Source: Siderastrea radians
Taxonomy: Eukaryota; Cnidaria; Anthozoa; Scleractinia; Rhizangiidae
Assembly (NCBI GenBank): GCA_964017195.1
Contig: OZ024890.1
Coordinates: 24,241,201-24,305,200 of the forward strand
Length of the DNA stretch: 64,000 nucleotides
Direction of reading: 5' to 3'
Positions 5,035 to 27,443 of this stretch are shown one piece after another. Every line of letters begins with the position of its first letter. Position 1 is the stretch's first letter. A program made the translations under genes and the position numbers. The notes under the pieces are model-generated. The model saw nothing but the letters and a program-made list of their open reading frames with translations. It was not told the origin of the DNA and ran no database searches.

Positions 5035-5206
5035 GTAACACTGGCATTTTCCTAATGTTGTAATTTTTAGTTGGTAGTAGCTAGCGAAGAAGGTATCTGT
5101 TGTCCCGCAAGTCAGTTGTGAATCAGTGTAAACGAGATAGTCAGGTAAAAAATAAACAAATGAAAATAGAATGATGTGTGGAGAGAGGAAACTCAGAAAA
5201 AAAAAT

Positions 5207-5290
5207 CTGAGTTCCAGATAGGATGTGAATCCACGACCTTCCGTACACTGATCGGATGCTCTAACCACTGAGCTACGAGAACTCTAGCGG
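5207..5290 (-). repeat. tRNA-like element (SINE head)
   Basis: On the minus strand this reads as a tRNA-like unit: GAGTTC/GAACTC closing stem, A-box-like TAGCTCAGTGG, and B-box-like GGATTCACATCC. A run of T (AGATTTTTTTTT) follows that could end Pol III transcription. The T-loop is altered (TTCACAT), so it is a tRNA-derived repeat rather than a working tRNA gene. The frames crossing it are incidental. Confidence 0.55.
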
Positions 5291-6562
5291 TGAGCGATGG
5301 TCACTTGTGGGCTGACACAACGAAAAACAAAAAAATTAACAAACTAAACAAAAATAAACAAAAATTAAACAGTTTCAATTTGAACAGTTAGTTCAGGGAT
5401 CCATGGTTCGAACAATTTTTCAGTTTTGTCAATCACGATATAGTTCCACAGCGTATACTAGACGTGGTAAAGATAACCGAGTTTGAATGAAATCCCATTT
5501 CTTGTTGGCACTTTGATTTTTATAAAAGCAAACAGGTCTGAAGATCAAATTCAAAACACCCATGTTTCCGATTCTAACTTGAAGACGTGAAAGAGGCGCT
5601 TTAATTTGTCGCTACGAATTGCAAAATATAGGATTTCGATCGTGATTTATTTATACCCTTCTTTATTATGCACTGATTCTACCTAAATGAATGACATAAG
5701 CTGCAAAAAATTTGCTAAAAAGGAGGCCTTTTTGCGTTGAAATAAACACATCAATCTTATATAGAGTTCTGCTATTTATTCATTTTTTTATTTATTTTAT
5801 TTTATTTTATTTTTTATTATTATTTTTTTGTTGCTGATAGCAGGGAGGCCGATGTCGCCTTACATGACCCGGCCAAAGGTTGTAGAAACACTGCGGTCTT
5901 CAATACACTGTATCTCCGAAAGAAGGACTATGACCCCTCGATTTCTCTGCCAGTCTGGCATGAGTTCGTCGTTATCTAGCTGCAGCAAAATTTAAAAAAA
6001 TCTGAACGGGGGAAAAATTAGTATTTTAGGCGCGAACGTCCTTAAATCAGCTTGTGTTCGATTCTGTTCCTTGTAAAGAACATGGGCGAATCCAGGCTTC
6101 TTCTTATGGAGATATTGCAATTTGAAAACGTTTTTATGTGTTAAAAGAAATCAGACCCATTCACTAAACCTAAATACACAAAAGAGTTACTGTACCACAT
6201 TCACTTTTTGCGGTCTTCTCGATAGGAGTCACGCGATATGAAGTTTGCGAAGAATAGTGCGGGTAAGCTGCAGTTTCAACGAATTGAATGGCACACTGCT
6301 CAGTAGATCAGCAGTTCCTTTTCCAGACTTGCCGCAGAACAAAGAAAGAGGCCACCTGAACTGACAAGCTGGAGAGCCGCAAGAGCCGGGTCTGAAGACG
6401 ACGAGGAAAATTGAGAAAGGGAGAATGACCTGACTCAGATGAGAAAGGCTGTCTGTCAGGAAATTAATCTTCCCCACCCATTAGAATACGAGGGTGATAA
6501 CAAGAGAAACAAATTTCAGGCGAAATGCAAGAACAGAGATCTGAAGCGCTTTCCATTTTTTC
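5291..6562. other. Intergenic, AT-rich, no gene seen
   Basis: Contains a T/A homopolymer-rich stretch at 5,770-5,830 and otherwise unremarkable sequence. No coding or RNA feature supported. Confidence 0.45.
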
Positions 6563-6626
6563 TAGCCTGCGTGCAGACGGCCACCCGCGGGTGGCAGGGA
6601 AATAGGAGACGTCTGCACGCAGGCTA
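6563..6626. mobile_element. 64-bp palindromic micro-element
   Basis: A 17-bp perfect terminal inverted repeat TAGCCTGCGTGCAGACG encloses only 30 bp, which itself begins with the perfect 16-bp palindrome GCCACCCGCGGGTGGC. Direct repeats CATTTTTT (6,554-6,561 and 6,627-6,634) flank it, with one extra C at the left. An 8-bp target duplication would fit the hAT superfamily. The T-rich target makes chance a partial explanation. Confidence 0.5.
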
Positions 6627-6689
6627 CATTTTTTTCAAGACTCACTTTAAAGCCGGGGGTACTCCTTTACTAAAATAAGCCACATTAAG

Positions 6690-6850
6690 GTATGTGCGGC
6701 GTGAAAGGATATGGATTTTGAGCTGTTTTGGTCTGAAATAGGGCATGGATTTTACCCATTTTGGTCTGAAATAGGGTATAGAATGTATCCATTTTGGTCT
6801 GAAATAGGGTAAGGGTTTGTCCTCTGGTCTGGAATTAGGTACTATTTTTA
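6690..6850 (+). repeat. Minisatellite, GGTCTGAAATAGGG unit
   Basis: Imperfect tandem copies of a ~36-bp unit with core TTTTGGTCTGAAATAGGG are seen from about 6,725 to 6,850. Relatives (ggtctgaaataacg) lie near 7,000. The flanking AGCCGGGGGTACTCC at 6,650 looks like an element end, but no clear partner was found. Confidence 0.5.
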
Positions 6851-8150
6851 GAAGAAGCTACCTTTTTGTAATTATTCATCTCTTGAGAAAAGTGCAGTTT
6901 GATTAATATTTGAAACCCTTCTCTAATGTTTACGCAAACTCAAGCAGTTCCTATGCAGTGCTATCATGTATCACATGATACGTGCTGCAAGGACTTGGTC
7001 TGAAATAACGAATCGAATTCTGGGTCAGTCTTGAAACAGGGTTGTGAACGTCACCGATATGTTCTGGTTTAAAAAAGCGAATGGGTCTCGAGAAGCGCAC
7101 CGCACACTCCGACTCAAATTTTCGGGGAGTATCCACGGGGCTGAACTCCAGGGAAAATTCCGAAAACTGTTGCATTATATCGAAAAACGGACCATCATTA
7201 AACCGAGAAATAAACGGAATGGCGGAAATAGGTTTTAAAACCTTTTCCTGGAAGATGCTGGAATATGAAAACGCACAGTGCTCCACTTGCGCGGGAAGAT
7301 ACTCTACTCTGTATATAAGACATCAGGTCTTGTTGTCGAATAGAAATTAGAAAACTCCCCGGATTAGTAATTCAATGACCGGTGGAAAACAAACTAAAAC
7401 TGAGAAACGAGTCTATTTACAACTATTGTTCTGTTAATTTAAAGACACTTCTTTCCCGGTTTTCCCAGGTTTTCCCTAGGTTTATTGTTTATTACTACTG
7501 TATTAAGTCTTATGTATTAATTATTAGCCGAAAATACTACGAAGACATAGAACAATCTAAATTGTAACGGGAAAGACAATTTGCCATCAAGCTATGTATA
7601 TAATAATAATAATAATAATGATAATAATAATAATAATAATAACTTCCTACGTATTTCAGTTTAGTTTGTATGACTGAACTGCCGATTACCCAATACGGAT
7701 CGCTAAAATGCACTACTCAAGTGTTATCAGTGATTCAAGTTTTCGAAAAATGCTTAAGGGAAAACAGTTTTTATGAAGGAGAAACCATTTTCCTAGCCGG
7801 TTTTTCCTACAACTTTGGCAGAGACCCTTGCGAAAATAAAAATTATGTTTGCACTTATTTTCATCTTTTTAGCGGGCGCTTGCCAATATAAATAAGCCTG
7901 CTGCCTGCGGCTCGGGTTGGAAAAAAAAAAGAAAAATACGAATTGGCAATAATTTCCCCGTAGGTACCGAACCTCAATGATAATCGGACCATCGGCTAGC
8001 ACTTGGCGAGGGTGGGGGGATGGGGAATTATTGCATTCGCCAGGTTCCCAAGATTTTTCTCCCTGAATGGGAGGGAAAGTCCTAGATAACAACTACTGTA
8101 GCCGCTAAGTACCTCATGTAACATAACTCAAAGTATAACCCCAAATATTC
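6851..8150. other. Intergenic with (ATA)n microsatellite
   Basis: No gene supported. An (ATA)n tract lies at about 7,601-7,643. Several short open frames here show no conserved motif. Confidence 0.45.
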
Positions 8151-9775
8151 AAACAGCGCTATAAAACCTTAAAAGTAGATCCTATAGAATCATATAAACC
8201 CTATACAGCCCTGTAAACCCCTATAAACCCCTGTAAACCCCTTTACAACCATGTAGACCCCAATACAACCCTGTTAACCCTATACAACCATGTAAACCCC
8301 TATACAACCATGTAAACCCCTATATAACCCTATTAAACGCTATACAGCCCTATAAACTTATGCCATCATGAAGACCTCCTATACAAACCTGTTAACCCCT
8401 AACAACCCTCTTAGCCCCTATACTACCCTATAAAACCCTATAAAACCATGTAGACCCCTGGGATACAACCCTGTAAACCCTGTACAACCATGTACACCCC
8501 TATACAACCATGTAAACCCCTATAGAACCATGTAGACCCCTATACAGCCATGTAGACCCCTTTGGAGCCCTGTCAAGTCCTATACAACCATGTAGAACCC
8601 TATACAGCCCGGCAAACCCTATTCAACCCTGTAGACCCCTATACAACTATGTATAAATCCTCCCTCTACAACCCTGTAAACCCCTCTACAACCCTGTACA
8701 CCCCATACAACCCTGTACACTCCTATACAACTCTGTACACCCCTATACAACACTATACATCCTATACAACCCTGTAAACCCCTCTACAACCCTGTAAACC
8801 CCTCTACAACCTGTACACCCCTATACAACCCTGTACACCCCTATACAACCCTGTACACCCCTATACAACCCTGTAAACCCCTATATAACCCTGTAAACCC
8901 CTATACAACCCTGTACACCCCTATACAACTCTGTACACTCCTATACAACCCTGTACACCCGTATACAACCCTGTACACCCCTATACAACCCTGTAAACCC
9001 CTATACAACCCTGTAAACCCCTATACAACTCTGTAAATCCCTATACAATCCTGTACACCCCTATACAACTCTGTACACCCCTATACAACCCTGTACACCC
9101 CTAAACAACTCTGTAAACCCCTATACAACCCTGACACCCCTATACAACCCTGTTCACCCCTATACAACTCTGTACACCCCTCTACAACCCTGTACACCCC
9201 TATACAACTCTGTAGACCGCTATACAACTCTTTACACCTCTATACAACTCTGTAAACTCTTATACAACCCTGTACACCCCTATACAACCCTGTACACCCC
9301 TCTACAACTCTGTACACCCCTATACAACTCTGTAAACCCCTATACAACTCTGTAAACCCCTATACAACCCTGTACACCCCTATACAAATTTGTAAACCCC
9401 TATACAACTCTGTACACCCCTATACCACCCTGTAAATCCCTATACAACTCTGTACACCCCTATACCACCCTGTAAATCCCTATACAACTCTGTACACCCC
9501 TATACCACCCTGTAAACCCCTATACAACTCTGTAAACCCCTATACAACCATGTAGACCCCTATACTGCCGTGTTGACCCCTATACAACCATGTGGACCCC
9601 TATACAACCATGTGGACCCCTATACGACCCTGAAAACCCCTATACAACCATGTAGACCCCTATAGAACCATTTTGACCCCTATCAACCATGTAGACCCCT
9701 ATACAACCCTGTAAACCCTATACAACCCTGTAAACCCATATACAACCATGTAATCCTCTATACAACCCTGTACAC
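8151..9775 (+). repeat. Satellite, left arm, outer unit class
   Basis: Tandem array of a 20-bp unit, consensus tatacaaccctgtaaacccc, with a frequent variant tatacaaccatgtagacccc. Units are mostly exactly 20 bp with point changes. The left edge (8,151-8,210) is more degenerate. The reverse complement of the same two unit types forms the outermost part of the array on the other side (22,267-24,135), so this is one arm of a large inverted repeat. Confidence 0.9.
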
Positions 9776-9989
9776 CCCTATACAGCACTATACACCCTTA
9801 AACAGCTCTATACACCCCTATACAGCACTATACAGCACTATTCACACACCCTTATACACCCTTATAAGACTCTATACAGCCCTATACAGCAGTATACACC
9901 CTATACAGCTCTATACACCCCTATACAGCACTGTACACCCCCTGAGCAGCAGAATACATCCCTACACAGCACTATACACCCTTATACAG
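9776..9989 (+). repeat. Satellite, left arm, inner unit class (part 1)
   Basis: The unit changes here to tatacagcactatacacccc, the reverse complement of the dominant unit at 14.75-18.8 kb. Inner-class sequence resumes at 12,097, so 9,990-12,096 is an interruption. Confidence 0.85.
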
Positions 9990-11242
9990 CCTTTTATTAA
10001 AAACTGGACTAGGTATATTGGATTTCTAGCATTTTGATTGGCTGAACGGAGCTAGGCTATCAGCTCATATACCTGCTGCGATCATATATGGTCAATGAAC
10101 ACTCACCAACAAAGTGAGCTGAAAGCTTTTTCCTCGCGAGCGACCCGGCGAGAAAAACGGATGAGAAAAATCACTTGGCTGCGAATTTAAATAAAGCAGA
10201 AATTGCAACAGCGTCACTAAGACACAAATCAAAATTGTTCCATAGTGCTTGATTTCTTAAGACAACAAGAAACTGTCTGCAGATATAGAAATTTAAGCAT
10301 TAAGAGTTGTGTTTGCAATTAATTCCTTTCATCGATCGTCACGTCGATTATTGAAATTGAACAAACGGTAGGTTTTATCAAGAAGGCTTTCCACTTCAAA
10401 ATATCAAGACAAAACATGAAGGACAAAGTGAAATGGGGAAGAAGAATTTAACGAAAACTATCACACATTCATTGCAAGTCGGTACGAAAATCATGAAGCA
10501 ATCTAAACAAGTACCAAACTACCAAGAAGGAAGGAAGGGCGAATTTTTTTTCGGCTATAACACGCAAAATTGACATTGGTTTACCTGCACTCGTTGTAGC
10601 GCTGTGTTCCAACAGCCGGGTCCAAATGTTCAGATACAAATCGGATGCCATGTAAACGGAGTTGAATCGCTTTCCCGGTTGTTTGAGTGTTGTTTTTACC
10701 ATTCCGTCCGCAATCTCTAAACCGAGAACAACTGCGTTTTGTGCTTTGCGTTTAACAAACTATGATAGTGAATTATAAAGTTCCTCGCTACAGTAATCTT
10801 GCTTCTGAGCTGCTTAGAAATTACTTCTTCAAGTTCAAATTAGTTCTGTCTTCAGCTCGATCAAACACGCACATGATGGATCCGCGAACGGATTACAAAC
10901 TTGCTCCCTTTCAACTCCAGCAGCTAACGATGAAATCGTACAGCTTCAATCCGCTTTGAACGATGATTACAGCAATGCTTCAGGAAAAATAAAACACGTA
11001 CCCTATTTCACGGCCAATAATTAAAAGATTTTTTTCCAAAACTTGTGCCACTTCTTTCACTTTCGAGCAGTTTCATTGATTCATTCAGCTTTGCAATGAA
11101 ACGCTGCAACACTTCGCAAGGTTTTGGCGCCTTTCTCGTTCAGTCATGTGATCGATTCTTGTTCCCTTGTTCTCTCTTTTACCTTTTTTCTCATTTTTTA
11201 CCTTTCTTTCTTGATTTTTTTTAAGTAGTGGCGAATTTTTAA
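9990..11242. repeat. Interspersed repeat interrupting the satellite
   Basis: Sequence unrelated to the satellite. Its core, about 10,140-10,990, is homologous to the minus strand of 58,440-59,240. Shared landmarks are the gacccggcgagaaaaa segment near 10,145, the minus-strand frame at 10,469-10,702 whose product shares LYLNIW and GKPxSILR with a frame at 58,792, and the agctcgatcaaacacgcaca segment near 10,855. Divergence is substantial. I see no transposase or RT domain; this is a non-coding dispersed family. Confidence 0.6.
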
Positions 11243-12096
11243 TAAAACAATTATTCTACTCGGGCTTGCTGGATATCGAATGATTATAACCAACGAGGCG
11301 CTACGCGCCTCGTTGGTTATCTATTTAACAATTATCCTGCGAAATCGCGCGGAATATCACCTGATACTTAGCCGACGAGGCCGTAGGCCGAGTTGGCTAA
11401 ATCAGGGGATATTCCGCAAGATTGAGCAGGATAATTGTTTTATTATTCAACAAATTCTCATCGACTACCATTTTCAGACAGAGAAAAACTATGGTTCTAT
11501 GATGAAAACGCTAAAAGCTAGCAACACATAATGAAAATCAAAACACAACTTCAAGAAATCGAACTTTACTACCGTTCACTTAAAAAGACTTATTTACAAA
11601 CTCATGTCTGGAAATAACAAGACAAAGTAAAAAAAATATTGCTACCGTACCGAGAATAAGTCCTCTTCCTGTGAATTAAAATCTTTTCAACTTTACAACT
11701 TTCCGTGAGCAAGTCTGCTGCTTAGTTCGCAATAGCATTTTCTTGGTTGAGTTCTCACTATGAAAATTCCAAGTCAACCTCTGGATATCTTTGTGAGCTG
11801 AAGCAAATACTTGTTGGCTTTTTGAGAGCATTTAATCGTGGAAAGTTTCTTCCAGGGAGTTAAAATTTGCGGAGAACACTGCTAAAACTGCCTCGCCTTT
11901 CAAAATGGCCACCAAACAAGCAATGAAAGAAAATCTGCAGTGCACTTCCAAATATGGTCATTTACGTATATCGCAGGATATCTGTCATGTAGGATGACAG
12001 ATATTGAGGGCTTCCGTACCATATATGGGCATAGTGACAATTTGTTGAATAATAACATTCGATATCCAGCGCGCCCTCGTAGAATAATTGTTAAAT
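11243..12096. mobile_element. Foldback element with nested hairpins inside the satellite
   Basis: The two ends are inverted repeats. The caattattctac...gctggatatcgaatg segment near 11,250-11,282 is matched by the reverse complement at 12,055-12,090. Inside are a perfect hairpin aaccaacgaggcgc-tac-gcgcctcgttggtt at about 11,290-11,320, and a longer hairpin at 11,329-11,441 that encloses another palindrome (tagccgac...gttggcta). No coding sequence. The right end abuts the satellite at about 12,097, so it inserted into or next to the array. Confidence 0.6.
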
Positions 12097-12491
12097 ATCC
12101 CCTATACAACACTATAAACCCCTATACAGCACTATACATCCCTATACAGCACTATACAGCCCTATACAGCTCTATGCGCCCTTATACAGCACTATACATC
12201 CCCTGAGCAGCAGTATACAACCCTACACAGCACTATACACCCCTATACAGCAATATACACCCCTATACAGCACTATACACCCTTATACAGCTGTATACAC
12301 CCCTTTACAGCGATATACACCCCTATATAGCATTATACACCCCTATTCTGCACTATACACCCCCTGAGCAGCAGGATATACCCCTTTACAGCACTATACT
12401 CCCCTATACAGCACTATACACCCTTATACAGCACTATACACCCCCTGAGCAGTAATATACACCCCTATACAGCACTATACACCCCTATTCT
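12097..12491 (+). repeat. Satellite, left arm, inner unit class (part 2)
   Basis: Resumption of the 20-bp unit tatacagcactatacacccc, with several copies of the variant ccctgagcagcag. It ends abruptly about 100 bp before the splice acceptor of the SWIM gene exon. Confidence 0.85.
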
Positions 12492-12591
12492 GTTACATTG
12501 GAAAATTTGCACCTTTTCATTTGTTCAAGCTAATATCGACACTGATTGCCCTAGTACAGTAAAACAACTTTCCCTTTTTGTTTCTCTTTAG

Positions 12592-12767
12592 AGGTGGGTG
12601 TGGCTCTACAGAAAAGATCGCATAAATGTGAAGGTGAATACCAACAATGGCATAGAGCGTCAAAACAAATCTTTCAAGTACGAATTCCTTGAGGGGAACA
12701 GAGACATGAAGTTAAGCGGTCTTCTTGCCATTCTTGTGACACAGTTTCTTCCACAGTCCTTTAAAAA
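12592..12767 (+). CDS. SWIM zinc-finger / MULE-like gene, penultimate exon
   Basis: A pyrimidine-rich acceptor (ttgtttctctttag) ends at 12,591. From 12,592 one frame is open for 58 codons plus 2 nt to a GT donor at 12,768, reading RWVWLYRKDR..., NTNNGIERQNK and LAILVTQFLPQSFKK. The NNGxERQNKxFK signature is typical of the C-terminal part of MULE-transposase-related, SWIM-bearing proteins common in cnidarian genomes. Removing the 288-nt intron joins this exon in frame (phase 2) to the exon at 13,056. Earlier exons are not in the window: immediately upstream is the satellite array, which has probably expanded in the preceding intron or cut the gene. The cellular role is unknown. Confidence 0.6.
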
Positions 12768-13055
12768 GTAGGTTAATGACCAAGATAACGAATGCCATAT
12801 TATATTTACCCTAAAAGTAGATATGCTATTTGAAAATAGCATATAAAGCCTCCTACTACTATGAATAAACGTAGTTGTATAAAGGTAACCCATTAAGAAG
12901 TCGTCATGAACGATATGGTTGTGAAAAAAGCTCATCCCTTCAAGGATGATGATGATGATGATGATAATGATGATGATGGTGTCAACAGGTGTTATGACAT
13001 TAGTTAACAATCAGTTTATTAGTTTTTGCTGACAATGTTCTTTAAAATCCCATAG
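12768..13055 (+). other. Intron of the SWIM gene with (GAT)n microsatellite
   Basis: GT...AG intron of 288 nt (donor gtaggttaatg, acceptor aaatcccatag) containing a (GAT)n tract at about 12,946-12,978. Confidence 0.55.
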
Positions 13056-13476
13056 GTATGAGGAACTGAACATTAGATCTTCGAGTTCATATCGCCTATA
13101 CAACACAAATGTGCCTGTGTGGTTAAGAGACAGACCGCGAGAGTTTGTTGCACATTGTATGGGTAGACTTTCCAGTGCTATGGAAACACCTGTTGAAGAT
13201 ATACAGGTGGTAGGCGGTGGCAAGTTTAAAGTTAAAAGCCAGACCGATCCGAAGGAGTATACCCTCGGCTTCTCAAATGAATTTTTTCCATCTTGTGAAT
13301 GCGAGGACTGGAAGAAAAATCATTGGCCCTGCAAACACTTTATGGCAGTCTTCACAAATTTTGAAGAATGGGGGTGGTACTGGTTGCCAGCTGTATCCCT
13401 CGATCCAAGCATCGTTGAACCAGGGCAAGTTCAAGAAGGTTACACGTTTGCAAAATTGAAGAATCGGCTTCGTTAA
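13056..13476 (+). CDS. SWIM-type zinc-finger exon
   Basis: The exon follows the acceptor cccatag at 13,055 and continues the frame of the 12,592 exon (YEELNIRSSSSYR...VPVWLRDRPREF). Its core is a SWIM motif, CECEDWKKNHWPCKHF, with the CxC...CxH arrangement that binds zinc. SWIM domains occur in MULE-type transposases and in ZSWIM-type host proteins, where they are thought to mediate DNA or protein contacts. The frame stops at 13,474-13,476. Coding potential then continues in another frame (13,480-13,844), so the stop is probably caused by a frame shift near 13,450 (within gcaaaattgaagaat) rather than being the true C-terminus. No internal ATG is needed, since this is an internal or terminal exon. 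Confidence 0.65.
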
Positions 13477-13479
13477 ACG

Positions 13480-13844
13480 TTAGTTTCAACCAAAATATGG
13501 AAGATGAAACCTTAGAAGAGGAGCAACTTTCTCTGAGCAAAAATTTTAAAGAGTCGGCGATGACGTGTCGAGAATATTTGACCCAAATTAAAGACTTGAC
13601 CTATCTGTGTGAAAATCATCAAATACTTGAAGAAACAGGTCAACTACTTAATAACATTCTTATTGATTTCCGGAAAAAACTTGAGACTGAGGATGGGCTT
13701 CTACTGGGAAAAAGAGTAGCTAAACGAGGACAAAGCTTAACCCAACCATCCACTCCAACAACCAGATGCTATTCCGAGATTCCCTGCAGAAACAAACGCA
13801 AACGAAAAACAAACCGAAACGGTAAATCTCAGAAAAAGGCATAA
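13480..13844 (+). pseudogene. Frame-shifted C-terminal tail of the SWIM gene
   Basis: Open in the +2 frame relative to the SWIM exon and directly continuous with it (ESASLNVSFNQN then MEDETLEEEQ). It is predicted to form a helical segment (CREYLTQIKDLTYLCENH...) followed by a lysine/arginine-rich tail resembling a nuclear localisation signal (RNKRKRKTNRNGK). A Cys-x3-Tyr helical tail after the SWIM domain is a pattern I associate with this protein family, but without a search that is an inference. If the frame shift is real, the gene copy is decayed. If it is an assembly error, the protein simply continues here. Confidence 0.45.
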
Positions 13845-13984
13845 AAGAAAGACAAAGCGTAACAGAAGCTTGGTACTAACAAGAACTTATTTACGAACGC
13901 GTTTCGAGCTATTTAGTTAGATAAGCGCGGGTTAACTTTCGCACAATGAAATTGTGGCCTAACATTTAAACACATTATTATTCT

Positions 13985-14145
13985 TTTGAGCTCACGATCG
14001 CCACTTTGAACGCTACTTAGACCTGGCGATCCGCGATTCTCCTCTTTAAACTTGGAATTGCCATTTTGAGCTGGTGATTGCCATTTTGAACTGGCAATTT
14101 GCTACTCTGGACTGGCGATCGCTTCTTGGAACTGGCGAAAATGGT
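13985..14145 (+). repeat. Degenerate 21-bp minisatellite
   Basis: About seven imperfect copies of a unit like ctggcgattgccattttgaa lie directly downstream of the SWIM gene. Confidence 0.5.
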
Positions 14146-14750
14146 CTGAGGCGTGAGCAGGCCTTGAGATCACAGTTTTTTTTTTACAACAGACCTGAGT
14201 TGCAGTGCCGTAGTAGGGTTAAAGTTATTGGGGTGGGGGGGCACATGACGAGCGCCGCAGGCACGAGCTTCTAGGGGAGTCCAGGGGAATGCTCCCCCGA
14301 GATATTTTCAAATATGAGGTCTCTGGAATAGCATTTCTCTCCTTCTGAGAGCAGTTTCCACCAAGCAATTTTTCTAACTGACTTTAATCATTGGAATACG
14401 TTACAGAAATAGCAATAGGAAAGCAAAATTAGGCTAACCAGAGCGCTAATCAGGCTAAACAAATCCAACGATATGGTAACATTGTTACTGTTCTATTTTT
14501 GAATATTAAAGCGGCACAAGCATATTATCACAGGGGAACGATTGACGTTGAAAGCGAATGACACCGAAATTTTATGGTGAGCGTTTAACTTCAATAAAGG
14601 TTTGCTAAAGGTCAGAATATTGGTGATGTCACTTTTTTGGCACTATTTCAAGCTAATTGATGTATAGATATCTTGTTTTTTTTTAATTTCAGAATACAAA
14701 TTGTACATCGGGAAATAATAAAGGTTGACTTTTACATCGAGTATCTATCG
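14146..14750. other. Spacer, no gene seen
   Basis: Includes a G-rich segment (ttggggtgggggggcac at 14,228) and the motif ggggaatgctcccccga at 14,285. Similar 'gggggagcatgcccc' segments recur at 56,075 and 62,195, suggesting a shared dispersed repeat. Confidence 0.4.
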
Positions 14751-17700
14751 TGTGTATAAGGCTGTATAGGGGTGTACAGTGCTGTTTAGGGGTGTATAGT
14801 GCTGTATAGTGCTGTATAGTGCTGTATAGGGGTGTGCAGTGCAGTATAGGGGTGTATAGTGCTGTATAGGGATGCATAGTGCTCTACAGGGGTGTATGGT
14901 GCTGTATAGGGGGTATATAGTGCTGTATAGGGATGTATAGTGCCGTATAGGGATGTATAGTGCTCTATAGGGGTGTATGGTGCTGTTTAGGGGTGTATAG
15001 TGCTGTATAGGGGTGTATAGTGCTGTATAGGGGTGTATAGATAGTGCTGTATAGGGGTATATAGTGCTGTATAGGGGTGTATAGGGATGTATAGTGCTGT
15101 ATAGGGATGTATAGTGCTGTATAGGGGAGTATGGTGCTGTATAGGGGTGTGCAGGGTTATATAGGGGTGTGCAGTGCAGTATAGGGGTGTACAGTGCTGT
15201 ATACAGATGTATAGTGCTGTATAGGGGTGTATAGTGCTGTATAGGGATGAATAGTGCTGTTTAGGGGTGTATAGTGCTGTATAGGGGTGTATAGTGCTGT
15301 ATAGGGATGTGCAGTGCTGTATAGAAGTGTGCAGTGCAGTATAGGCGTGTATAGGGATGTATAGTGCTTTATAGGGGTGTATGGTGCTGTATAGGGGTGT
15401 ATAGTGCTGTATAGGGATGTAGAGTGCTGAATAGGGATGAATAGAGCTCTATAGGGGTGTATAGTGCTGTTTAAGGGTGTATAGTGCTGTATAGGGGTGT
15501 ATAGTGCTGTATAGGGGTGTGCAGTGCTGTATAGGGGTGTGCAGTGCAGTATAGGCGTGTATAGTGCTGTATAGGGTGTAAAGTGCTGTATAGGGATGTA
15601 TAGTGCTGTATAGGGATGAATTAGTGCTCTAAAGGGCTGTATGGTGCTGTTTAGGGGTGTATACTGCTGTATAGGGGTGTATAGTGCTGTTTAGGGGTGT
15701 ATAGTGCTGTATAGGGGTGTATAGTGCTGTATAGGGGTGTATAGTGCTGTATAGGGGTGTATAGTGCTGTATAGGGGTGTGCAGTGCTGTATAGGGGTGT
15801 ATAGTGCTGTATAGGGGTGTGCAGTGCTGTATAGGGGTGTATAGTACTGTATAGGGGTGTATGGTGCTGTATAGGGGTGTATAGTGCTGTATAGGGATGT
15901 ATAGTGCTGTATAGGGATGAATAGTGCTCTATAGGGGTGTATGGTACTGTTTAGGGGTGTATAGTGCTGTATAGGGGTGTATAGCACTGTATAGGGGTGT
16001 ATAGTGCTGTATAGGGGTGTGCAGTGCTGTATAGGGGTGTGCAGTGCAGTATAGGGGTGTATAGTGCTGTATAGGCATGTATAGTGCTGTATAGGGGAGT
16101 ATGGTGCTGCATAGGGGTGTGCAGTGCTGTATAGGGGTGTGCAGGGTTATATAGGGGTGTGCAGTGCAGTATAGGGGTGTATAGTGCTGTATAGGGATGT
16201 ATAGTGCTGTATAGGGGAGTATGGTGCTGCATAGGGGTGTGCAGTGCTGTATAGGGGTGTGCAGGGTTATATAGGGGTGTGCAGTGCAGTATAGGGGCGT
16301 ACAGTACTGTATACGGATGTATAGTGCTGTTTAGGGGTGTATAGTGCTGTATAGGGGTGTATAGTGCTGTATAGGGATGTATAGTGCTGTTTAGGGGCGT
16401 ATAGTGCTGTATAGGGGTGTATAGTGCTGTATAGGGATGTGCAGTGCTGTATAGGGGTGTGCAGTGCTGTATAGGGCTGTATAGTGCTGTATAGGGATGT
16501 ACAGTGCTTTATAGGGGTGTATGGTGCTGTATAGGGTGTATAGTGCTGTATAGGGATGTAGAGTGCTGAATAGGGATGAATAGTGCTCTATAGGGGTGTA
16601 TAGTGCTATTTAAGGGTGTATAGTGCTGTATAGGGATGTATAGTGCTGTATAGGGGTGTATAGTGCTGTATAGGGGTGTGCAGTGCTGTATAGGGGTGTG
16701 CAGTGCAGTATAGGGGTGTATAGTGCTGTATAGGGGTGTAAAGTGCTGTATAGGGATGTATAGTGCTGTATAGGGATGAATAGTGCTCTAAAGGGGTGTA
16801 TGGTGCTGTTTAGGGGTGTATAGTTCTGTTTAGGGGTGTATAGTGCTGTATAGGGGTGTATAGTGCTGTATAGGGGTGCATAGTGCTGTACAGGGGTGTA
16901 TAGTGCTGTAGAGGGGTGTGCGGTGCTCTATAGGGGTGTATAGTGCTGTATAGGGTGGTGCAGTGCTGTATAGGGGTGTATAGTACTGTATAGGGGTGTA
17001 TGGTGCTGTATAGGGGTGTATAGCGCTGTATAGGGATGTATAGTGCTGTATAGGGATGAATAGTGCTCTATAGGGGTGTATGGTGCTGTTTAGGAGTGTA
17101 TAGTGCTGTATAGGGGTGTATAGTGCTATATACGGAAGTATAGTGCTGTATAGGGGTGCGCAGTGCTGTATAGGGGTGTGCAGTGCAGTATAGGGGTGTA
17201 TAGTGCTGTATAGGGGTGTAAGGTGCTGTATAGGGATGTATAGTGCTGTATAGGGATGAATAGTGCTCTAAAGGGGTGTATGGTGCTGTTTAGAAGTGTA
17301 TAGTACTGTATAGGGGTGTATAGTGATGTTTAGGGGTGTATAGTGCTGTATAGGGATGTATAGTGCTGTATAGGGGTGTATAGTGCTGTATAGGGGTGTA
17401 TAGTGCTGTATAGGGGTGTACGGTGCTGTTTAGGGGTGTATAGTGCTGTATAGGGGTGTATAGTGCTGTATAGGTGTATAGTGCTGTATAGGGATGTGCA
17501 GTGCTGTATAGGGGTGTGCGGTGCTGTATAGGGGTGTATAGTGCTGTATAGGGGTGTGCAGTGCTGTATAGGGGTGTATAGTACTGTATAGGGGTGTATG
17601 GTGCTGTGTAGGGGTGTATAGTGCTGTATAGGGATGTATAGTGCTGTATAGGGATGAATAGTGCTCTATAACGGTGTATGGTGCTGTTTAGGGGTGTATA

Positions 17701-18802
17701 GTGCTGTATACGGGTGTATAGTGCTGTATAGGGGTGTATAGTGCTGTATAAGGGTGTGCAGTGCTGTATAGGGGTGTGCAGTGCAGTATAGGGGTGTATA
17801 GTGCTGTATAGGGATGTATAGTGCTGTGTAGGGGAGTATGGTGCTATATAGGGGTGTGCAGTGCTGTATAGGGGTGTGCAGGGTTATATAGGGGTGTGCA
17901 GTGCAGTATAGGGGTGTACTGTGCTGTATACGGATGTATAATGCTGTTTAGGGGTGTATAGTGCCGTATAGGGTGTATAGTGCTGTATAGGGGTGTGCAG
18001 TGCTGTATAGGGGTGTGCAGTGCAGTATAGGGGTGTATAGTGCTGTATAGGGATGTATAGTGCTTTATAGGGGTGTATGGTGCTGTATAGGGTGTATAGT
18101 GCTGTATAGGGATGTAGAGTGCTGAATAGGGATGAATAGTGCTCTATAGGGGTGTATAGTGCTGTTTAAGGGTGTATAGTGCTGTATAGGGGTGTATAGT
18201 GCTGTATAGGGGTGTATAGTGCTGTATAGGGGTGTGCAGTGCTGTATAGGGGTGTGCAGTGCAGTAAGGGGTGTAAAGTGCTGTATAGGGTGTAAAGTGC
18301 TGTATAGATGTATAGTGCTGTATAGGGATGAATAGTGCTCTAAAGGGGTGTATGGTGCTGTTTAGGGGTGTATAGTGCTGTATAGGGTGTATAGTGCTGT
18401 ATAGGGGTGTATAGTGCTGTATAGGGGTGTATAGGGGTGTATAGGGGTGTATAGTGCTGTAGAGGGGTGTGCGGTGCTGTATAGGGGTGTATAGGGCTGT
18501 ATAGGGGTGTGCAGTGCTGTATAGGGGTGTATAGTACTGTATAGGGGTGTATGGTGCTGTATAGGGGTGTATAGTGCTGTATAGGGTTGTATAGTGCTGT
18601 ATAGGGATGAATAGTGCTCTATAGGGGTGTATGGTGCTGTATAGGGGTGTATAGTGCTGTATAGGGGAGTATAGTGCTGTATAGGGGTGTGCAGTGCTGT
18701 ATAGGGGTGTGCAGTGCAGTATAGGGGTGTATAGTGCGGTATTGGGATGTATAGTGCTCTATAGGGGTGTATGGTGCTGTATAGGGGTGTATAGGGCTGT
18801 AC
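14751..18802 (-). repeat. Satellite, right arm, inner unit class
   Basis: About 4 kb of the 20-bp unit ggggtgtatagtgctgtata, the reverse complement of the inner class on the left. Variants (gatgaatagtgctct, gtgcagtgcagtata, gcagggttatata) recur at intervals of several hundred bases, which shows higher-order repeats. For example, 16,081-16,140 is repeated at 16,201-16,260. Long minus-strand open frames here encode a periodic Y/T/P/H/I peptide because three 20-bp units equal 20 codons; I do not count them as genes. Confidence 0.92.
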
Positions 18803-21800
18803 GAATTGTTCGAAGTCTCGAAAACGACATTGAAATCTATTCTTCCCAAGGGTCGACTCTACTCATGGGTGACCTAAACTCTAGAACAGGAAAATATTCG
18901 GACTCTGTCTGTCAAGAAGGAAATAACATGATAACCAACGACCAATCCGAATTTGCGATGTGTTCCACTCAGAGGAATAGTTTTGACAATGAGCTTAATA
19001 ACCACGGAAAGCGCCTTCTTGAACTCTGCCGAAGCGCGGACCTCCGAATACTCAATGGCAGAGTTAGTGGTGATTCATTAGGAAGAGCCACGTTTCATGG
19101 TAGAAACGGAACAAGTGTCGTCGATTATTCAATATGTGATCAAGATTTATTTCAACATGTAGCAAATTTTATTGTTAAAGAGCCATCCTGTTTATCAGAT
19201 CATAGCCCAATAGTGACTTGGCTGAATATTAACACGAATATTTCTAATCGGGATGCAATACCTGCAAATGATACTTTGACGAGTTTACCGAAACAGTTCT
19301 GCTGGGAGCATGACTCCACACAAAAATTCAAAGAGGCACTACGGTCTCCAAGTACCCAAACGTTAATCCGAGAGTTTCTAAACGACAACGAATCAATCGC
19401 AATCCCTTCAAAAAGTAGAAAACATTTTCATCGCAACTGCAAAACGCTGCTTAAAGATAAAAACTATAAAAAAACATAAACGCGCCCAATTATCTTCAAA
19501 CAAAAAATGGTTTGATAAAGAATGTCGCTTGAAAAGACATGAATTAAGAAAATTAGCAAATCAAAAACACAGAGATCCCTTAAACGTCATTCTCCGTGAA
19601 GAATATCATACTGTCTTAAAACAGTATAAGAACCTTCTAAATAATAAAAGAAATGAATACTACAATAACAAGATTTCTGAGCTAGAGGAAACCGCCCTCG
19701 ATTCAGACAAGAAACACTTTTGGAATTGTCTGAAATCAATTGATGACTCAGTGAAATTAAAACATACTCCACTGATTTCAGAAGAAAATTGGATGAAACA
19801 TTTCCAGTCTCTTCATTCAAATGACCCTCTTAACTCCGATCAACAAAACCGTATCTATGAGTTACGAAAACAAGAAGACAACAAAATGCAATCGCATCCA
19901 TTGGACTTCTTCATCACAGAAGCCGAAATACGTACAGCAGTAAAAAAATTAAAGAATAACAAATCACCCTATTCAGACAAAATACGAAACGAAATGATTA
20001 AAACTAGTTTAAATGAAATGATACTCGTTTATCAGAAACTTTTCAACAATATTCTTGATTTGGGATCAATGCCTCAAATGTGGTGTGGTGGGCTCATTAC
20101 ACCAATATTCAAGTCTGGTGGAAGAAATGACCCCTCAAATTACCGAGGAATTTGCGTTTCTAGCTGTCTAGGAAAATTATTTTGTTCGATTTTAAATCAA
20201 AGACTTCTAGAACATGTCAACTCGTTGAACATCCTTCACAAATCTCAAATCGGTTTTTTACCGAATAACCGAACTGCAGACCATGTTCTTACTTTGCGAA
20301 CATTGATAGATAAGTACGTTAATTGTCACCATGAAAAGGTATACGCCTGTTTTGTCGATTTCAGGAAAGCTTTCGACTCGGTATGGCACGATGGGCTCCT
20401 TTATAAACTGCTGCAAAATAATGTTGGAGGAAATTTTTATAACCTAATCAAAAGCCTCTACTACAATTCTACCGGTTCTATAAGGATTGGCAATAACCAA
20501 ACGCGACCTTTTCAATATGCAAGAGGTGTACGCCAAGGCTGCATTCTGAGTCCACTTCTGTTTAACCTATACATTAATGACTTACCTTTCTCTTTCGACA
20601 ATATTCTATCTGATCCATTTGTTTTACCCAATGGAACCAAATTAAACTCTCTTTTGTATGCAGATGACTTGATTATACTATCACGATCAAAAACAGGGCT
20701 GCAAAATTGTCTCAATGCATTAGCCCAGTACTGTACATCGTGGATGTTACAGATTAATCCTAAGAAAACTAAAATAATGGTTTTTCAAAAACGCGCGAAA
20801 AAATATGAATGTAACTTTTATATTGACAAAGAAAAGATTGACACTGTTCAGAATTATACTTATCTAGGAACGCGAATTTCTTCATCTGGAAATTTCACAC
20901 TGTCGTTGGATCACTTGAGAGAAAAGGCTCTTCATGCTCTCTTTGCTTTAAGACGGCACGTTGACTTAAGCCGTTTAAAACCCTCTCTTGCTTGCAAAAT
21001 TTTCGACACGATGATTTCACCCATTTTGACTTATAATAGCGAAGCCTGGGGTGTCTTTGCTAAATCAGATTTCAAGTCTTGGGACACTTCACCAATTGAA
21101 AAAAGTCACTTACAATTTTGCAAACGCTACTTACAAGTTAATAACAAGGCATCTAATATTGCATGCCGGGCTGAAATGGGTCGCTTCCCTTTAACCTTTG
21201 ATATAAATAAACGAATTCTTAAGTACATAAGTTATCTTCAAAATAAAGATCAAAACTCCTTCGTCTTGCAATCACTGATAATGTCAATAGATTTGCACTG
21301 TAATGGTAAAAATAGTTTCTATTCCAGTGTTATAAATATGCTCAATTATTATGACATTCCCTTTAACTTTAATCATGACACTTTAGATGACACTAAGATA
21401 ACGTACCTTGTAGATCAAATGAAAAAGAAATATATCGCTTATTGGAAACATTCTCTTTGTAATTCTCAAAAACTAGAATTTTATAATACTATTAAAGACA
21501 GTTATACACCTTCACCTTATTTACATTTGACTAGAAAAAATCCTAATCGAAAAACGCTTGTGAAACTAAGAATAAGTAATCACAAACTCCTGATTGAAAC
21601 AGGAAGATATAACAATGTCCCCAGAAGTGACAGACTATGCACTATTTGTGGGCATAATGTTGAAGATGAGACCCATTTTCTATTTCATTGTCCAAGATAT
21701 TCATCACTTAGAGACAACTTTTTCAGTAAAATAGATCATGTAATTTCGAAACCCAAGCAGCTATCAATTTCAACCTTGATTGTGCAATTAATGAACTCCA

Positions 21801-22017
21801 CTGACTATTATATTAATATGCAATTAGTGCAGTTTATATCGTCCTGTTTTGAAATGAGAGACAAATTATTGTCAAATTCTTGATCAGTGATTATTTGATT
21901 AGTTTTGTTTAATGACTTTTTATTGTAATTATTGTTATTATATATTATCTTATGCTTTTGCAATACTGTAATGTTTTATGGTCATGCAAATAAAGCGCAA
22001 GTGTTGTTGTTGTTGTT
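18803..22017 (+). mobile_element. 5'-truncated non-LTR retrotransposon (LINE), nearly intact ORF2
   Basis: Inserted in the satellite. It begins inside the apurinic-like endonuclease domain (LLMGDLNSRTG at about 18,858-18,890; SDHSPI at about 19,197). After a 1-nt frame shift in an A7 run at 19,468-19,474 it continues with a full reverse transcriptase: FVDFRKAFDSV, GVRQGCILSPLLFNLYIND and the catalytic YADD (about 20,656-20,667). Near the C-terminus is a Cys/His cluster, CTICGHNVEDETHFLFHC. The untranslated tail ends in (TTG)n at 22,000-22,017, as in CR1/L2-type elements that use short repeats instead of poly(A). The element copies its RNA at a nicked chromosomal target. Apart from the single-base shift both frames are open, so it is young. 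Clade assignment beyond CR1/L2-like is uncertain. Confidence 0.85.
19529..21883 (+). CDS. LINE ORF2 reverse transcriptase region
   Basis: A 784-codon open frame after the homopolymer frame shift. Order: N-terminal helical linker, RT fingers/palm (FKSGGRNDPSNYRGI, DFRKAFDSVWHDG, RQGCILSPLL), catalytic aspartates in YADD, thumb (LQINPKKTK), then a 350-residue C-terminal region ending in the CxxC...H...C cluster. The frame extends upstream of the nominal start (KKWFDKECRLKR); it is not a separate protein but the continuation of the endonuclease part at 18,803-19,479. It would supply target-primed reverse transcription. Confidence 0.8.
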   Translation: MKRHELRKLANQKHRDPLNVILREEYHTVLKQYKNLLNNKRNEYYNNKISELEETALDSDKKHFWNCLKSIDDSVKLKHTPLISEENWMKHFQSLHSNDPLNSDQQNRIYELRKQEDNKMQSHPLDFFITEAEIRTAVKKLKNNKSPYSDKIRNEMIKTSLNEMILVYQKLFNNILDLGSMPQMWCGGLITPIFKSGGRNDPSNYRGICVSSCLGKLFCSILNQRLLEHVNSLNILHKSQIGFLPNNRTADHVLTLRTLIDKYVNCHHEKVYACFVDFRKAFDSVWHDGLLYKLLQNNVGGNFYNLIKSLYYNSTGSIRIGNNQTRPFQYARGVRQGCILSPLLFNLYINDLPFSFDNILSDPFVLPNGTKLNSLLYADDLIILSRSKTGLQNCLNALAQYCTSWMLQINPKKTKIMVFQKRAKKYECNFYIDKEKIDTVQNYTYLGTRISSSGNFTLSLDHLREKALHALFALRRHVDLSRLKPSLACKIFDTMISPILTYNSEAWGVFAKSDFKSWDTSPIEKSHLQFCKRYLQVNNKASNIACRAEMGRFPLTFDINKRILKYISYLQNKDQNSFVLQSLIMSIDLHCNGKNSFYSSVINMLNYYDIPFNFNHDTLDDTKITYLVDQMKKKYIAYWKHSLCNSQKLEFYNTIKDSYTPSPYLHLTRKNPNRKTLVKLRISNHKLLIETGRYNNVPRSDRLCTICGHNVEDETHFLFHCPRYSSLRDNFFSKIDHVISKPKQLSISTLIVQLMNSTDYYINMQLVQFISSCFEMRDKLLSNS

Positions 22018-22266
22018 GTATAGTACTGTATAGGGTTTATAGCGCTGTATTGGGGTGTACAGTGCTATATAGGGATATATAGAGCTTTATAGGGGTGTAC
22101 AGTGCTGTATAGGGGTGAATAATGCTATATAGGGGTGTACAGTGCAGTATAGGGGTGTACAGTGCAGTATAGGTGTATAGTGCTGTATAGGATATATACT
22201 GCTGTATAGGGGTTTGTAGTGCTGTATAGGAGTGTATAGTGCTGTATAGGGATGTACAGTGCTCTA
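22018..22266 (-). repeat. Satellite, right arm, inner class beyond the LINE
   Basis: Inner-class 20-bp units (gtatagtgctgtata...) continue for about 250 bp after the LINE tail, then switch to the outer class. This shows the LINE landed inside the inner block. Confidence 0.85.
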
Positions 22267-24135
22267 AAGGGGTGTACAGGGTTGTATAGAGGTTTACAGG
22301 GTTGTATAGGGGTCTACATGGTTGTATAGGGGTTTACAGGGTTATATAGGGGATTACAGGGTTGTATGGGGCTTTACAGCGCTGAATAGAGGTTTACAGG
22401 GTTGTATAGTGGTCTACATGGTTCTATAGGGGTTTACAGGGTTGTATGGGGGTCTACATGGTTGTATAGGGGTTTATAGGGTTGTATAGGGGTTTTACAG
22501 GACATGACAGGGCTGTATACTGGTCTACATGGTTGTATAGGGGTTTACAGGGTCGTATAGGGGTTTACAGGGTTGTATAGGAGGTTTACAGGGTTTTATA
22601 GAGTTTTACAGCGCTGTATAGAGGGTTACAGGGTTGTATAGGGGTCTACATGGTTCTATAGGGGTTTACAGGGTAGTATGGGGTGTACATGGTTGTATAG
22701 GGTATATAGGGTTGTATGGGGGGTTTTACAGGACATGGCAGGGCTGTATAGGGGTCTACGTGGTTGTATAGGGGTTTACAGGGTTGTATAGGGTTTACAG
22801 GGTTGTATAGGGGGTTTACAGGGTTGCATAAGGGTCTAAATGGTTGTATAGGGTTTTACAGGGTTGTATGGGGGTCTACATGGTTGTATAGGGGTTTATA
22901 GGGTTGTATAGGGGTTTTACAGGACATGACAGGGCTGTATAGGGGTCTACATGGTTGTAGAGGGGTTTACAGGGTTTTATAGGGGATTACAGCGCTGTAT
23001 AGGGGTTTACAGGGTTGTATAGGGGTTTACAGCGCTGTATAAAGGTTTACAGGGTTGTATAGAGGTCTACAGCGCTGTAGAAAGGTTTACAGGGTTGTAT
23101 ATGGGTTTACAGTGCTGTATAGGCGTTTACAGGGTTGTGTAGGGGTTTACAGCGCTGTATAGAGGTTTACATGGTTGTATAGGTTAACAGGGTGTATCCC
23201 TAGGGGTCTACATGGTTCTATAGGGGTTTACATGGTTGTTTAGGGGTCTACATGGTTCTATAGTGGTTTGCAAGGCTATATAGGGGTCTACATGGTTCTA
23301 TAGGGGTTAACAGGGTTTATAGGGGTCTACATGGTTGTATAGGGGTTTACAGCGTTGTATAGGGGACTACATGGTTCTATAGGGGTTTACATGGTTGTTT
23401 AGGGGTCTACATGGTTCTATAGGGGTTTGCAGGGCTATATAGGGGTCTACATGGTTGTATAGGGGTTAACAGGGTTGTATAGGGGTCTACATGGTTGTAT
23501 AGGGGTTTACAGGGTTGTATAGGGGTTTACCGGGTTGTATAGGGGTCTACATGGTTCTATAGGGTTTACAGGGCTACATAGGGTTTTACAGGGTTTATAG
23601 GGGTCTACATGGTTGTATAGGGGTGTACAGGGTGTATAGGGGTCTACTTGGTTGTATAGGAGTTTACAGCGCTGTATAGGGGTTTACAGGGTTGTATAGG
23701 AGTTTACAGGGTAAAATAGGGGTCTACATGGTTCTATAGGGGTTACCAGGATTGTATAGGGGTCTACATGGTTCTATAGGGGTTAACAGGGTTGTATAGG
23801 AGTCTACTTGGTTGTATAGGGGTTTACAGCGCTGTATAGGGGTTTACAGGGTTGTATAGGGATTTACAGGGCTATATAAGGGTCTATATGGTTCTATAGG
23901 GGTTACCAGGGTTGTATAGGGGTCTACATGGCTCTATATTGGTTAACAGGGTTGTATAGGTGTCTACATGGTTGTATAGGGGTTTACAGCGCTGTATAGG
24001 GTTTACAGGGTTGTATAGGGTTTACAGGGCTATATAGGGGTCTACATGGTTCTATAGTGGTCTACATGGTTGTATACGGGTGTACAGGTTTGTGTAGGGG
24101 TTAACTGGGTTGTAAATTATAGGGCTGTATACTGA
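22267..24135 (-). repeat. Satellite, right arm, outer unit class
   Basis: Tandem 20-bp units ggggtttacagggttgtata and ggggtctacatggttgtata, the exact reverse complements of the two outer unit types on the left arm. About 1.9 kb, close to the 1.6 kb of the left outer block. The end is degenerate near 24,110-24,135. Confidence 0.9.
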
Positions 24136-24889
24136 TGTATGGGGAATTAAAGTCCTTTATATTGTAATCAATTGTAAGTATAATTTTTGGTTATACCTTG
24201 TGTTGCGTTATATAACGTACGAACGTTTGGCTACGGTAGTTGTTATCTAGAATTTTCCAAACGGGAGGACTCAAACTTATTTTAACATAACTTATCCGGT
24301 GGAGTTTCAAATTAATTCAGCTCATAGTTAGCCAAGAAACTTATTTTCGTCGCCAAGAAAAAAAACGTGGAATCGCTACGTCGTTAAGGAAATGTTTGAC
24401 CGCCGACGGTGTTTGTTTTGGGAACTATGATACGGTAGAGTCAAAACCACCAGCCACAGGTCTTCACTTCGAACAAGGAACTGTATTGACATCACGGCAA
24501 AGCAAAACGCTTCAGGTAATCTACAGGCCTGCTGCTTTGCCAGAAGCCAGAAGCTTTAAAGGCTAAACAACAACCATTGTTAGTAACAAGGATCAGCTTG
24601 ACTACAGTATAATTTGTCACGCAATTCTTCAAACGTGACGTTGGGTTTGCACTTGGATTCGAATTTATAAACTGTATAAAAATGGAGAATTCACGAACAA
24701 TATATCAAGGTACTTTAATCGCTGGATTTGTGTACGTTCTCAAACAGTTTATGAGTGGAAATTGAAGTAATACGATCGAAAGCGTAAAGAAAGCTATGTC
24801 GGTACTGGAGTTGCCGAGGCAGTTGAGAATCAGCAGTGCGGTAAAAACAGCGAACCCTTAGAAAACTGATTCGTTGGCCCAATTTTATA
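24136..24889. other. Intergenic, no gene seen
   Basis: Single-copy-looking sequence between the satellite and an inverted-repeat element. No coding motif recognised. Confidence 0.4.
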
Positions 24890-26176: not shown

Positions 26177-26663
26177 TGCAACTTTGGCACACCTTCCTAT
26201 GTTTGGTGAGTAATCTGCAATTAGTGTTTTATTTGTATCCTCCCGGACATCTGAGAAACAGCCCTGCGAAAAAGGCTTATTTTGTGCTTTTCAAAAATGT
26301 CACGGGGTGTGTATAATTAGTTTCCTTGTAGATGGTGAATTAAGGATAGTTAACGTTTGAGCTAACATTTATTTTAATGAACTAAGTTCAAATATTGCGT
26401 GTCTGTAAAATTAGGTTCGTAGTGGTTTTGCTTCAAAAGATATTCAAAGCTGAATTTCACTCAAAATCACTACTTCACCACCCCAGAGGGGCAGTTTTTG
26501 GGGGGGTGGTCTGTTCTCAGAAGCAATGAAGCCAATGGGAAAAACATATTACCATGGGTACGAGTTGTGTAAGGACAGTAACTAACAGAAATATGGTTCA
26601 GATCAGCTGATCCCCTTCTTCCAAGATTTTTCAATTTTGCCTGGTTATCTCAGACAGAGACTC
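26177..26663. other. Intergenic, no gene seen
   Basis: No feature beyond a G-rich run (tttttgggggggtgg near 26,495). Confidence 0.4.
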
Positions 26664-27443
26664 TTAATGAGATGGTCCTCAGGATGCAGTGCTCGGGGTA
26701 TACAGCAAGAAGTTCAGATATGAGGTTGTCGACTCGGCCCTCAAGGCGTATAAAACGAGGAATGAAGCTGCTCAAGAAGGAGAACGACCGCTACATCGAC
26801 CCAAAGAGTGGAAGAAAGACGAACGAGAACAAGAAAAGGCGAGGAAGAAAAACGATTGGTACAAGCGGGGCAGAAACGAGGCAGTCATCTTTGTACCAGC
26901 TACACCGAATTCACAGCTACTGAGGAAATATCAGAAAGAGTAAAACGGCAAGGTTTCAAGATCAAAGTAGTAGAAAAGGCTGGCATTGCAATTAAGAGAT
27001 TGCTCCAGAGATCTGATCGGTGTAAACCGCGACAATGTGAAAGAGAAGACTGCCCGGTATGTAGAACGGATGGAAAAGGACCGTGTCATAGACAGAGCGT
27101 AACATATGAAATCAAATGTACCAAGTGTAACAACATCTACGTGGGAGAAACACCAAGAAGCGCGTATACCAGAGAGAAGGAACACGAGAAGTCACTTAGC
27201 AATAAGGAAGAGCGATCGGCCTTGTGGAAACATTGTAAGGAGAAACATAACAATGAAGTGCAGAGATTTCAAATAAATGTTACCTGTCTTTACCCTAACG
27301 ACGCTATGTTGAGGCAGATATCTGAGGGTGTGAGGACAGAGAAAGTACCCGGAGACTCCTTAATTAACTCTAAAAACGAGTGGAACTTTTTCCGAATTCC
27401 GCGCGCGGTAATCCCGCATGGCCGCGCGCTACCATCAAAGTAG
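26664..27443 (+). pseudogene. Penelope-like element, C-terminal GIY-YIG endonuclease (broken)
   Basis: Begins at the point where the RT thumb of the fragment at 1-741 ends (shared AYKTRN segment). It encodes a basic linker, a cysteine-rich zinc-binding segment (CEREDCPVC near codon 75 of the 26,808 frame), and a GIY-YIG nuclease core with NNIYVGET and the following R...EH residues. In Penelope-like elements this endonuclease nicks DNA to prime reverse transcription. A 2-nt insertion near 26,700 and a 1-nt loss near 26,941 break the frame, so the copy is inactive. It ends near 27,443. Confidence 0.75.

What the first reader, a model, noticed from the sequence alone, without database searches (positions are those of the whole stretch)
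8151..24135. A 16-kb inverted satellite with mirrored unit classes
The 20-bp repeat forms two arms in opposite orientation. Both arms have the same order from outside to inside: tatacaaccctgtaaacccc-type units, then tatacagcactatacacccc-type units. The outer blocks are similar in length (about 1.6 and 1.9 kb), but the inner block is about sevenfold longer on the right (4.3 kb against 0.6 kb). Mirror ordering is what one expects if an already differentiated array was duplicated as an inverted copy, followed by one-sided expansion of the inner part. Such a structure could form a giant hairpin, a fragile site or a heterochromatin seed.
Basis: seen in the sequence. Interest (0 to 1): 0.8.

Follow-up and report, generated by a model that had tools for sequence, protein, structure and literature searches.

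The report
Decayed foldback-type transposon with satellite ends
The mirrored repeat arrays are best read as the two inverted ends of an old, broken jumping gene of a kind already known from flies and nematodes, here in what looks like a stony coral; it matters mainly as an example of how transposon ends can grow into satellite-like DNA.

Summary
The mirrored array is real. 20-bp units run in + orientation at 8195-9991 and 12099-12488 and in - orientation at 14752-18801 and 22017-24114, with the same class order from outside to inside in both arms. Of 413 units, 384 have their nearest cross-arm neighbour in the same class, 7 in the other, 22 tie.

(1) Inverted homology continues beyond the satellite: non-repetitive ends at 8074 and 24258 align inverted (score 59; best of 2376 control comparisons 26), beside a candidate 9-bp target-site duplication matching 7 of 9. 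(2) The centre carries 3' exons of a MULE-type transposase relative with a SWIM finger, frameshifted; the catalytic DD half was not found. (3) A 2.1-kb non-coding stretch splits the left arm. (4) A 3.2-kb LINE splits the right arm.

Best explanation: a dead copy of a Foldback-type Mutator-like transposon whose terminal inverted repeats consist of tandem subrepeats that turned over separately in each arm. A new member of a known kind. Only one copy was seen; the genome-wide search did not complete.

The parts
8065..8073 (.). candidate left target-site duplication GAATGGGAG
   Evidence: 7 of 9 match with 24259-24267, both mismatches transitions; random pairs reach this in 0.2% of trials at a fixed boundary, 5% with boundary and length free
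8074..8190 (+). non-repetitive outer end of left terminal inverted repeat, begins GGAAAGTCCTAGATAACAACTAC (inner limit is a judgement)
   Evidence: 8060-8160 against the reverse complement of 24140-24260 scores 59, control maximum 26 of 2376; 61 of 77 aligned bases identical in the outermost part
8195..9770 (+). left outer satellite block, 79 units, TATACAACCCTGTAAACCCC class
9771..9998 (+). left inner satellite block, outer piece (11 units), TATACAGCACTATACACCCC class
9999..12096 (.). non-coding stretch splitting the left inner block, read as a later insertion; holds inverted-repeat pieces (11246-11287 with 12052-12092; 11327-11439 self-inverted) and a stretch 10210-10884 related to 58570-59202
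   Evidence: self-BLAST; no Pfam domain in six frames; no convincing direct repeat at its borders, so 'insertion' rests on inner-class units on both sides
12097..12490 (+). left inner satellite block, inner piece (20 units)
12590..12767 (+). transposase-like exon with VNTNNGIERQNK (presumed third catalytic acidic residue; splice sites read by eye)
   Evidence: P0001 matches 12598-12768 at 91%; aligned; no Pfam match above cut-off for this exon
13056..13844 (+). transposase-like exon with SWIM zinc finger; frame changes near 13450-13470, homology continues in another frame to about 13841
   Evidence: PF04434 E 2.1e-7; P0001 and P0002 match across two frames
14745..18801 (-). right inner satellite block, main piece (204 units)
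18802..22016 (+). non-LTR retrotransposon (endonuclease and reverse transcriptase, ends in (GTT)n), apparently 5'-truncated, inserted in the right inner block
   Evidence: PF14529 E 1.7e-8, PF00078 E 2.9e-41; sequence
22017..22275 (-). right inner satellite block, outer piece (13 units)
22276..24116 (-). right outer satellite block, 94 units
24117..24258 (-). non-repetitive outer end of right terminal inverted repeat
24259..24267 (.). candidate right target-site duplication AAACGGGAG

Best explanation
The region 8074-24258 is one old, inactivated copy of a Foldback-type Mutator-like DNA transposon (16.2 kb, about 10.9 kb without the two interruptions) in a cnidarian, probably stony coral, genome. 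Its terminal inverted repeats have a short unique outer end followed by tandem 20-bp subrepeats in two classes (outer, inner). Shown: the arms, the class order, the unique inverted ends, the remnant exons with a SWIM finger, and the two interruptions. Inferred: a transposase once bound the termini (and perhaps the subrepeats) and moved the element by cut-and-paste, leaving a 9-bp duplication; subrepeat numbers then changed independently in each arm by slippage or unequal exchange; an internal deletion removed the 5' transposase exons and possibly much of the left inner block; a LINE and a non-coding sequence later landed in the arrays.
For: Inverted homology reaches unique sequence outside both arrays and stops at GGAAA, next to a 9-bp direct repeat with 7 of 9 matches. 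The centre encodes relatives of proteins that carry the MULE transposase domain PF10551: 7 of 10 longer hits by precomputed domains, 3 of 7 proteins scanned. Closest protein: P0001 from Oculina patagonica, 88% over 95% of the query, cluster of 11 sequences. Classes pair across arms, while units are more often closest to their own arm than to the other (43 to 12, 37 to 6, 15 to 5 and 110 to 29, rest ties) and show no order shared between arms, as expected if each arm turned over on its own. Tm1, a Mutator/Foldback family, has the same plan: unique terminal motifs, 13-15-bp tandem repeats differing in number at the two ends, 9-bp duplications, nested elements (PMC3169594, abstract and passages).
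Against: Only one copy was seen. The duplication is imperfect, and 5% of random pairs do as well when boundary and length are free. The catalytic DD half was not found in the window by motif scan or by tblastn (the printed tblastn list was cut within P0013), so the gene's tie to the termini rests on position; it could be a captured piece. The border of the left insert shows no convincing direct repeat.
Confidence: 0.78

Rival explanations
1. Free-standing satellite: a differentiated array was duplicated as an inverted copy, with one-sided expansion of the inner part; the gene piece and unique ends are simply what lay beside it.
For: Mirrored class order and class pairing.
Against: Inverted homology stops at 8074/24258 beside a candidate 9-bp duplication; the centre holds a transposase relative; no shared unit order. 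A segmental inversion gives no reason for a target-site duplication.
Confidence: 0.1
2. A transposon whose interior captured a piece of an unrelated host SWIM-domain gene (Pack-MULE-like), so the gene is cargo and not the element's own transposase.
For: Only 3' exons are present and relatives are annotated as ordinary uncharacterized genes; MULEs tend to acquire host gene fragments (PMC6446971, start of abstract in the listing).
Against: The cargo would happen to be the C-terminal part of a MULE-type transposase. Hydra relatives P0011 and P0016 stand for clusters of 23 and 14 sequences, and P0011 also has a Ulp1 protease match (P0016 was not scanned there), a companion of some mobile elements (recalled).
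Confidence: 0.1
3. Assembly artefact: collapsed or inverted contigs made the mirrored arrays.
For: No reads are available; repetitive arrays are assembly-prone.
Against: The unique ends differ at 16 of 77 aligned bases plus 10 gap positions, the arms hold different insertions, and CTGAGCAG variants occur only on the left, so one arm is not a misplaced copy of the other. Array lengths may still be wrong.
Confidence: 0.02

Closest known systems
Tm1, Mutator/Foldback family of root-knot nematodes (PMC3169594; abstract and passages seen)
   Same: Unique terminal motifs, then tandem short repeats differing in number at the two ends; mostly 9-bp duplications; a putative MULE-type transposase in some copies; a nested element in one copy.
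   Different: Repeat unit 13-15 bp, not 20; Tm1 transposase resembles Phantom, the remnant here resembles SWIM-bearing MULE/ZSWIM1-3-like proteins; the right arm here holds about 6.2 kb of units.
Drosophila Foldback (FB) elements (not fetched; described as composite TIRs with domains and tandem repeats in PMC3169594 passages)
   Same: Long inverted repeats made of domains and tandem repeats.
   Different: No sequence comparison was made; the host here is a cnidarian.
Tetris of D. virilis (PMC4079207; abstract and passages seen)
   Same: Foldback structure whose internal tandem repeats served as building blocks for satellite arrays; 8-10-bp duplications; placed in Mutator on that and earlier suggestions; no transposase found in its copies.
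   Different: Amplification into satellite arrays was shown there; here a single locus with a 20-bp unit.
Galileo (PMC3573991; abstract and passages seen)
   Same: TIR length changes by expansion and contraction of internal tandem repeats, with different numbers in the two TIRs of one copy.
   Different: P-superfamily transposase; TIRs of about 1.26 kb at most in that study; repeat about 210 bp.
Rehavkus (PMC6446971; passages seen)
   Same: MULE-like, 9-bp duplications, a minisatellite near an end.
   Different: Minisatellite only before the 3' TIR there; tandem repeats in both TIRs here.

Membership tests
Mutator-like elements (MULE) | terminal inverted repeats at both ends | tested here: met
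   8060-8160 against the reverse complement of 24140-24260 scores 59, control maximum 26 of 2376
Mutator-like elements (MULE) | 8-11-bp target-site duplication directly outside the TIRs (PMC6446971 passage) | tested here: inconclusive
   9 bp at the alignment boundary, 7 of 9 match; null 0.2% fixed, 5% flexible
Mutator-like elements (MULE) | DDE transposase with MULE domain | tested here: inconclusive
   only the third-acidic-residue exon and SWIM exon found; PF10551 in 7 of 10 longer relatives by precomputed domains and in 3 of 7 proteins scanned; no D/D motif found in the window
Foldback-type elements | composite TIRs with a unique part and tandem subrepeats whose number differs between the two ends | tested here: met
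Foldback-type elements | dispersed multiple copies with the same termini | not testable with these tools
   The genome search did not answer in 11 tries; patterns had 0 matches in viral contigs and genome contigs, where a coral element is not expected
Rehavkus | minisatellite before the 3' TIR only (PMC6446971 passage) | tested here: not met
   tandem repeats make up both TIRs
Rehavkus | PHD finger in the transposase | tested here: inconclusive
   no PHD match in the three + strand frames of the centre or six frames of the left insert, but most of the gene is missing, and the Hydra relative P0011 has a below-cut-off PHD match (22.8 bits, cut-off 24)
Conventional satellite DNA | head-to-tail arrays in one orientation, up to megabases (PMC4079207 passage) | tested here: not met
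   two opposed arms of about 2.2 and 6.2 kb inside a bounded element; other loci could not be searched

The most novel reading that the evidence does not exclude
A coral family of Foldback-type MULEs, with a SWIM/ZSWIM1-3-like transposase, whose 20-bp subrepeats are repeated transposase-binding sites that grow into two-class satellites: each arm is a satellite nursery that diversifies on its own while the outer/inner division is kept by function at the ends.
Probability: 0.25. Interest if true: 0.5.

Novelty: new member of a known kind. Interest (0 to 1): 0.35.

Why it matters
If other copies confirm it, this would be a cnidarian case of a Foldback-type element with satellite-length ends, and a clear example of mirrored satellites arising from transposon termini and not from segmental inversion. 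It also suggests that inverted satellites in coral assemblies should be checked for transposon ends. It does not by itself open or settle a major question.

Tried and rejected
Rejected: wider inverted duplication. Self-BLAST (E up to 1e-5) shows only two inverted matches between the left flank (1-8073) and the sequence right of 24258, both in Penelope-like pieces (1-96 with 26666-26763; 1989-2058 with 26437-26505) at unequal distances; this BLAST also did not list the 79%-identical TIR ends, so it is blind to short diverged matches. The targeted alignment of 7600-8260 with 24050-24800 began at 8074/24258. Rejected: matching inner flanks (best score 20, 15 bases). Rejected: shared unit order. 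Led nowhere: terminus and array patterns in viral contigs (0) and genome contigs (0); SWIM protein in viral contigs (1 pattern match, none confirmed); PDB sequence search (0). Literature searches (listings capped, 15 of 58, 2 of 2, 5 of 5, 12 of 30, 10 of 54, 10 of 23, 6 of 6) showed no title or abstract start that I recognised as a coral or other cnidarian Foldback element; Repbase and most subscription papers are not held, so absence from print is not shown.

Full report
Observation. Blocks were set by position and units compared afterwards. Of 413 units kept (8 of 421 dropped for more than 4 gaps), 384 have their nearest cross-arm neighbour in the same class, 7 in the other, 22 tie. Blocks differ in size, which biases nearest-neighbour counts towards the larger block; comparison of means gives 75 of 79, 29 of 29, 89 of 91 and 210 of 214 for the same class.

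What was missed. The left inner block is split at about 9999-12096 by a non-coding stretch with repeat pieces and the right inner block at about 18802-22016 by a LINE. I read both as later insertions because inner-class units lie on both sides; the left one has no convincing border repeat, and the short matches at the LINE borders are array sequence itself. The inverted homology continues beyond the satellite: 8060-8160 against the reverse complement of 24140-24260 scores 59, against a maximum of 26 in 2376 comparisons with other stretches of the window on both strands. The aligned ends start at 8074 and 24258, with GGAAA on both sides. In the outermost part 61 of 77 aligned bases are identical (9 transitions, 7 transversions, 10 gap positions). 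The nine bases outside are GAATGGGAG and AAACGGGAG, 7 of 9 alike, both differences transitions. Random pairs reach this in 0.2% of 200,000 trials at a fixed boundary, and 5% of 20,000 when boundary and length are free: suggestive, not proof.

Centre. Between the inner blocks lie two exons, with splice sites read by eye. The first contains VNTNNGIERQNK, taken as the third acidic motif of the DDE core (recalled); by itself it has no Pfam match above cut-off. The second has a SWIM zinc finger (PF04434, E 2.1e-7). The nearest protein is an Oculina patagonica gene model (88%), which is why I take the host as a stony coral; this was not tested otherwise. Of 10 longer relatives, from Hydra, scallops and a crinoid, 7 carry PF10551 by precomputed domains; of 7 proteins scanned here, three (P0009, P0011, P0014) do. 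In the alignment these proteins have conserved LDATY and DY motifs, the presumed two Asp residues, upstream of the point where the window's first exon begins. A motif scan of six frames found only the third motif, and the tblastn rows printed (cut within P0013) show no strong match outside the two exons. The SWIM exon changes frame near 13450-13470. This copy is very probably dead.

Interpretation. Unique inverted ends, tandem subrepeats of unequal number, a candidate 9-bp duplication and a MULE-type gene remnant together match the Mutator/Foldback plan as described for Tm1. Galileo shows that tandem repeats in the two TIRs of one copy expand and contract independently, and Tetris that Foldback repeats can seed satellites. 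Independent turnover fits the lack of shared unit order, the excess of own-arm nearest neighbours and the arm-specific variants: CTGAGCAG occurs 4 times, all in the left inner block (9942, 12203, 12364, 12445), and the combination A, G, C at unit bases 7, 12 and 15 is found in 26 of 79 left outer units against 4 of 91 right outer units. The MULE TIRs surveyed in PMC6446971 are 14-500 bp (passage), so arms of about 2.2 and 6.2 kb of units are long for the superfamily. The short left inner block and the missing 5' exons lie side by side, so one deletion could explain both; this is inference.

Limits. One copy only; the genome-wide search did not answer in 11 tries. Array lengths rest on the assembly. 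The Rehavkus link is not fully closed: a Hydra relative, P0011, has a below-cut-off PHD match.

Noticed in passing
39053-43056: A second inverted-repeat structure: five pairs of segments (39053-39272 with 42832-43056 at 93%, through 40955-41068 with 42105-42213), with a 4-copy 247-bp tandem array (39793-40782) only in the left arm and 19/38-bp arrays (41092-41489) in the centre.
   Followed up: no
39913-40729: Each of the four 247-bp tandem copies carries a tRNA-Thr(GGT)-like sequence on the - strand.
   Followed up: no
28637-37436 and 45691-52761: Direct duplication in several pieces, with interferon-inducible GTPase (IIGP, PF05049) coding sequence on the - strand at 51567-52673 and a related stretch at 36262-37215 (86%).
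   Followed up: partly
1-2058 and 26437-27440: Penelope-like pieces (name recalled): an inverted pair 97.5% alike (136-740 with 1305-1905) and, on the right, an open frame with a below-cut-off GIY-YIG match (E 0.0013).
   Followed up: partly
12097-12490: An 81-bp higher-order period in the left inner block with CTGAGCAG variants at 12203, 12364 and 12445 (and one at 9942); none in the right arm.
   Followed up: partly
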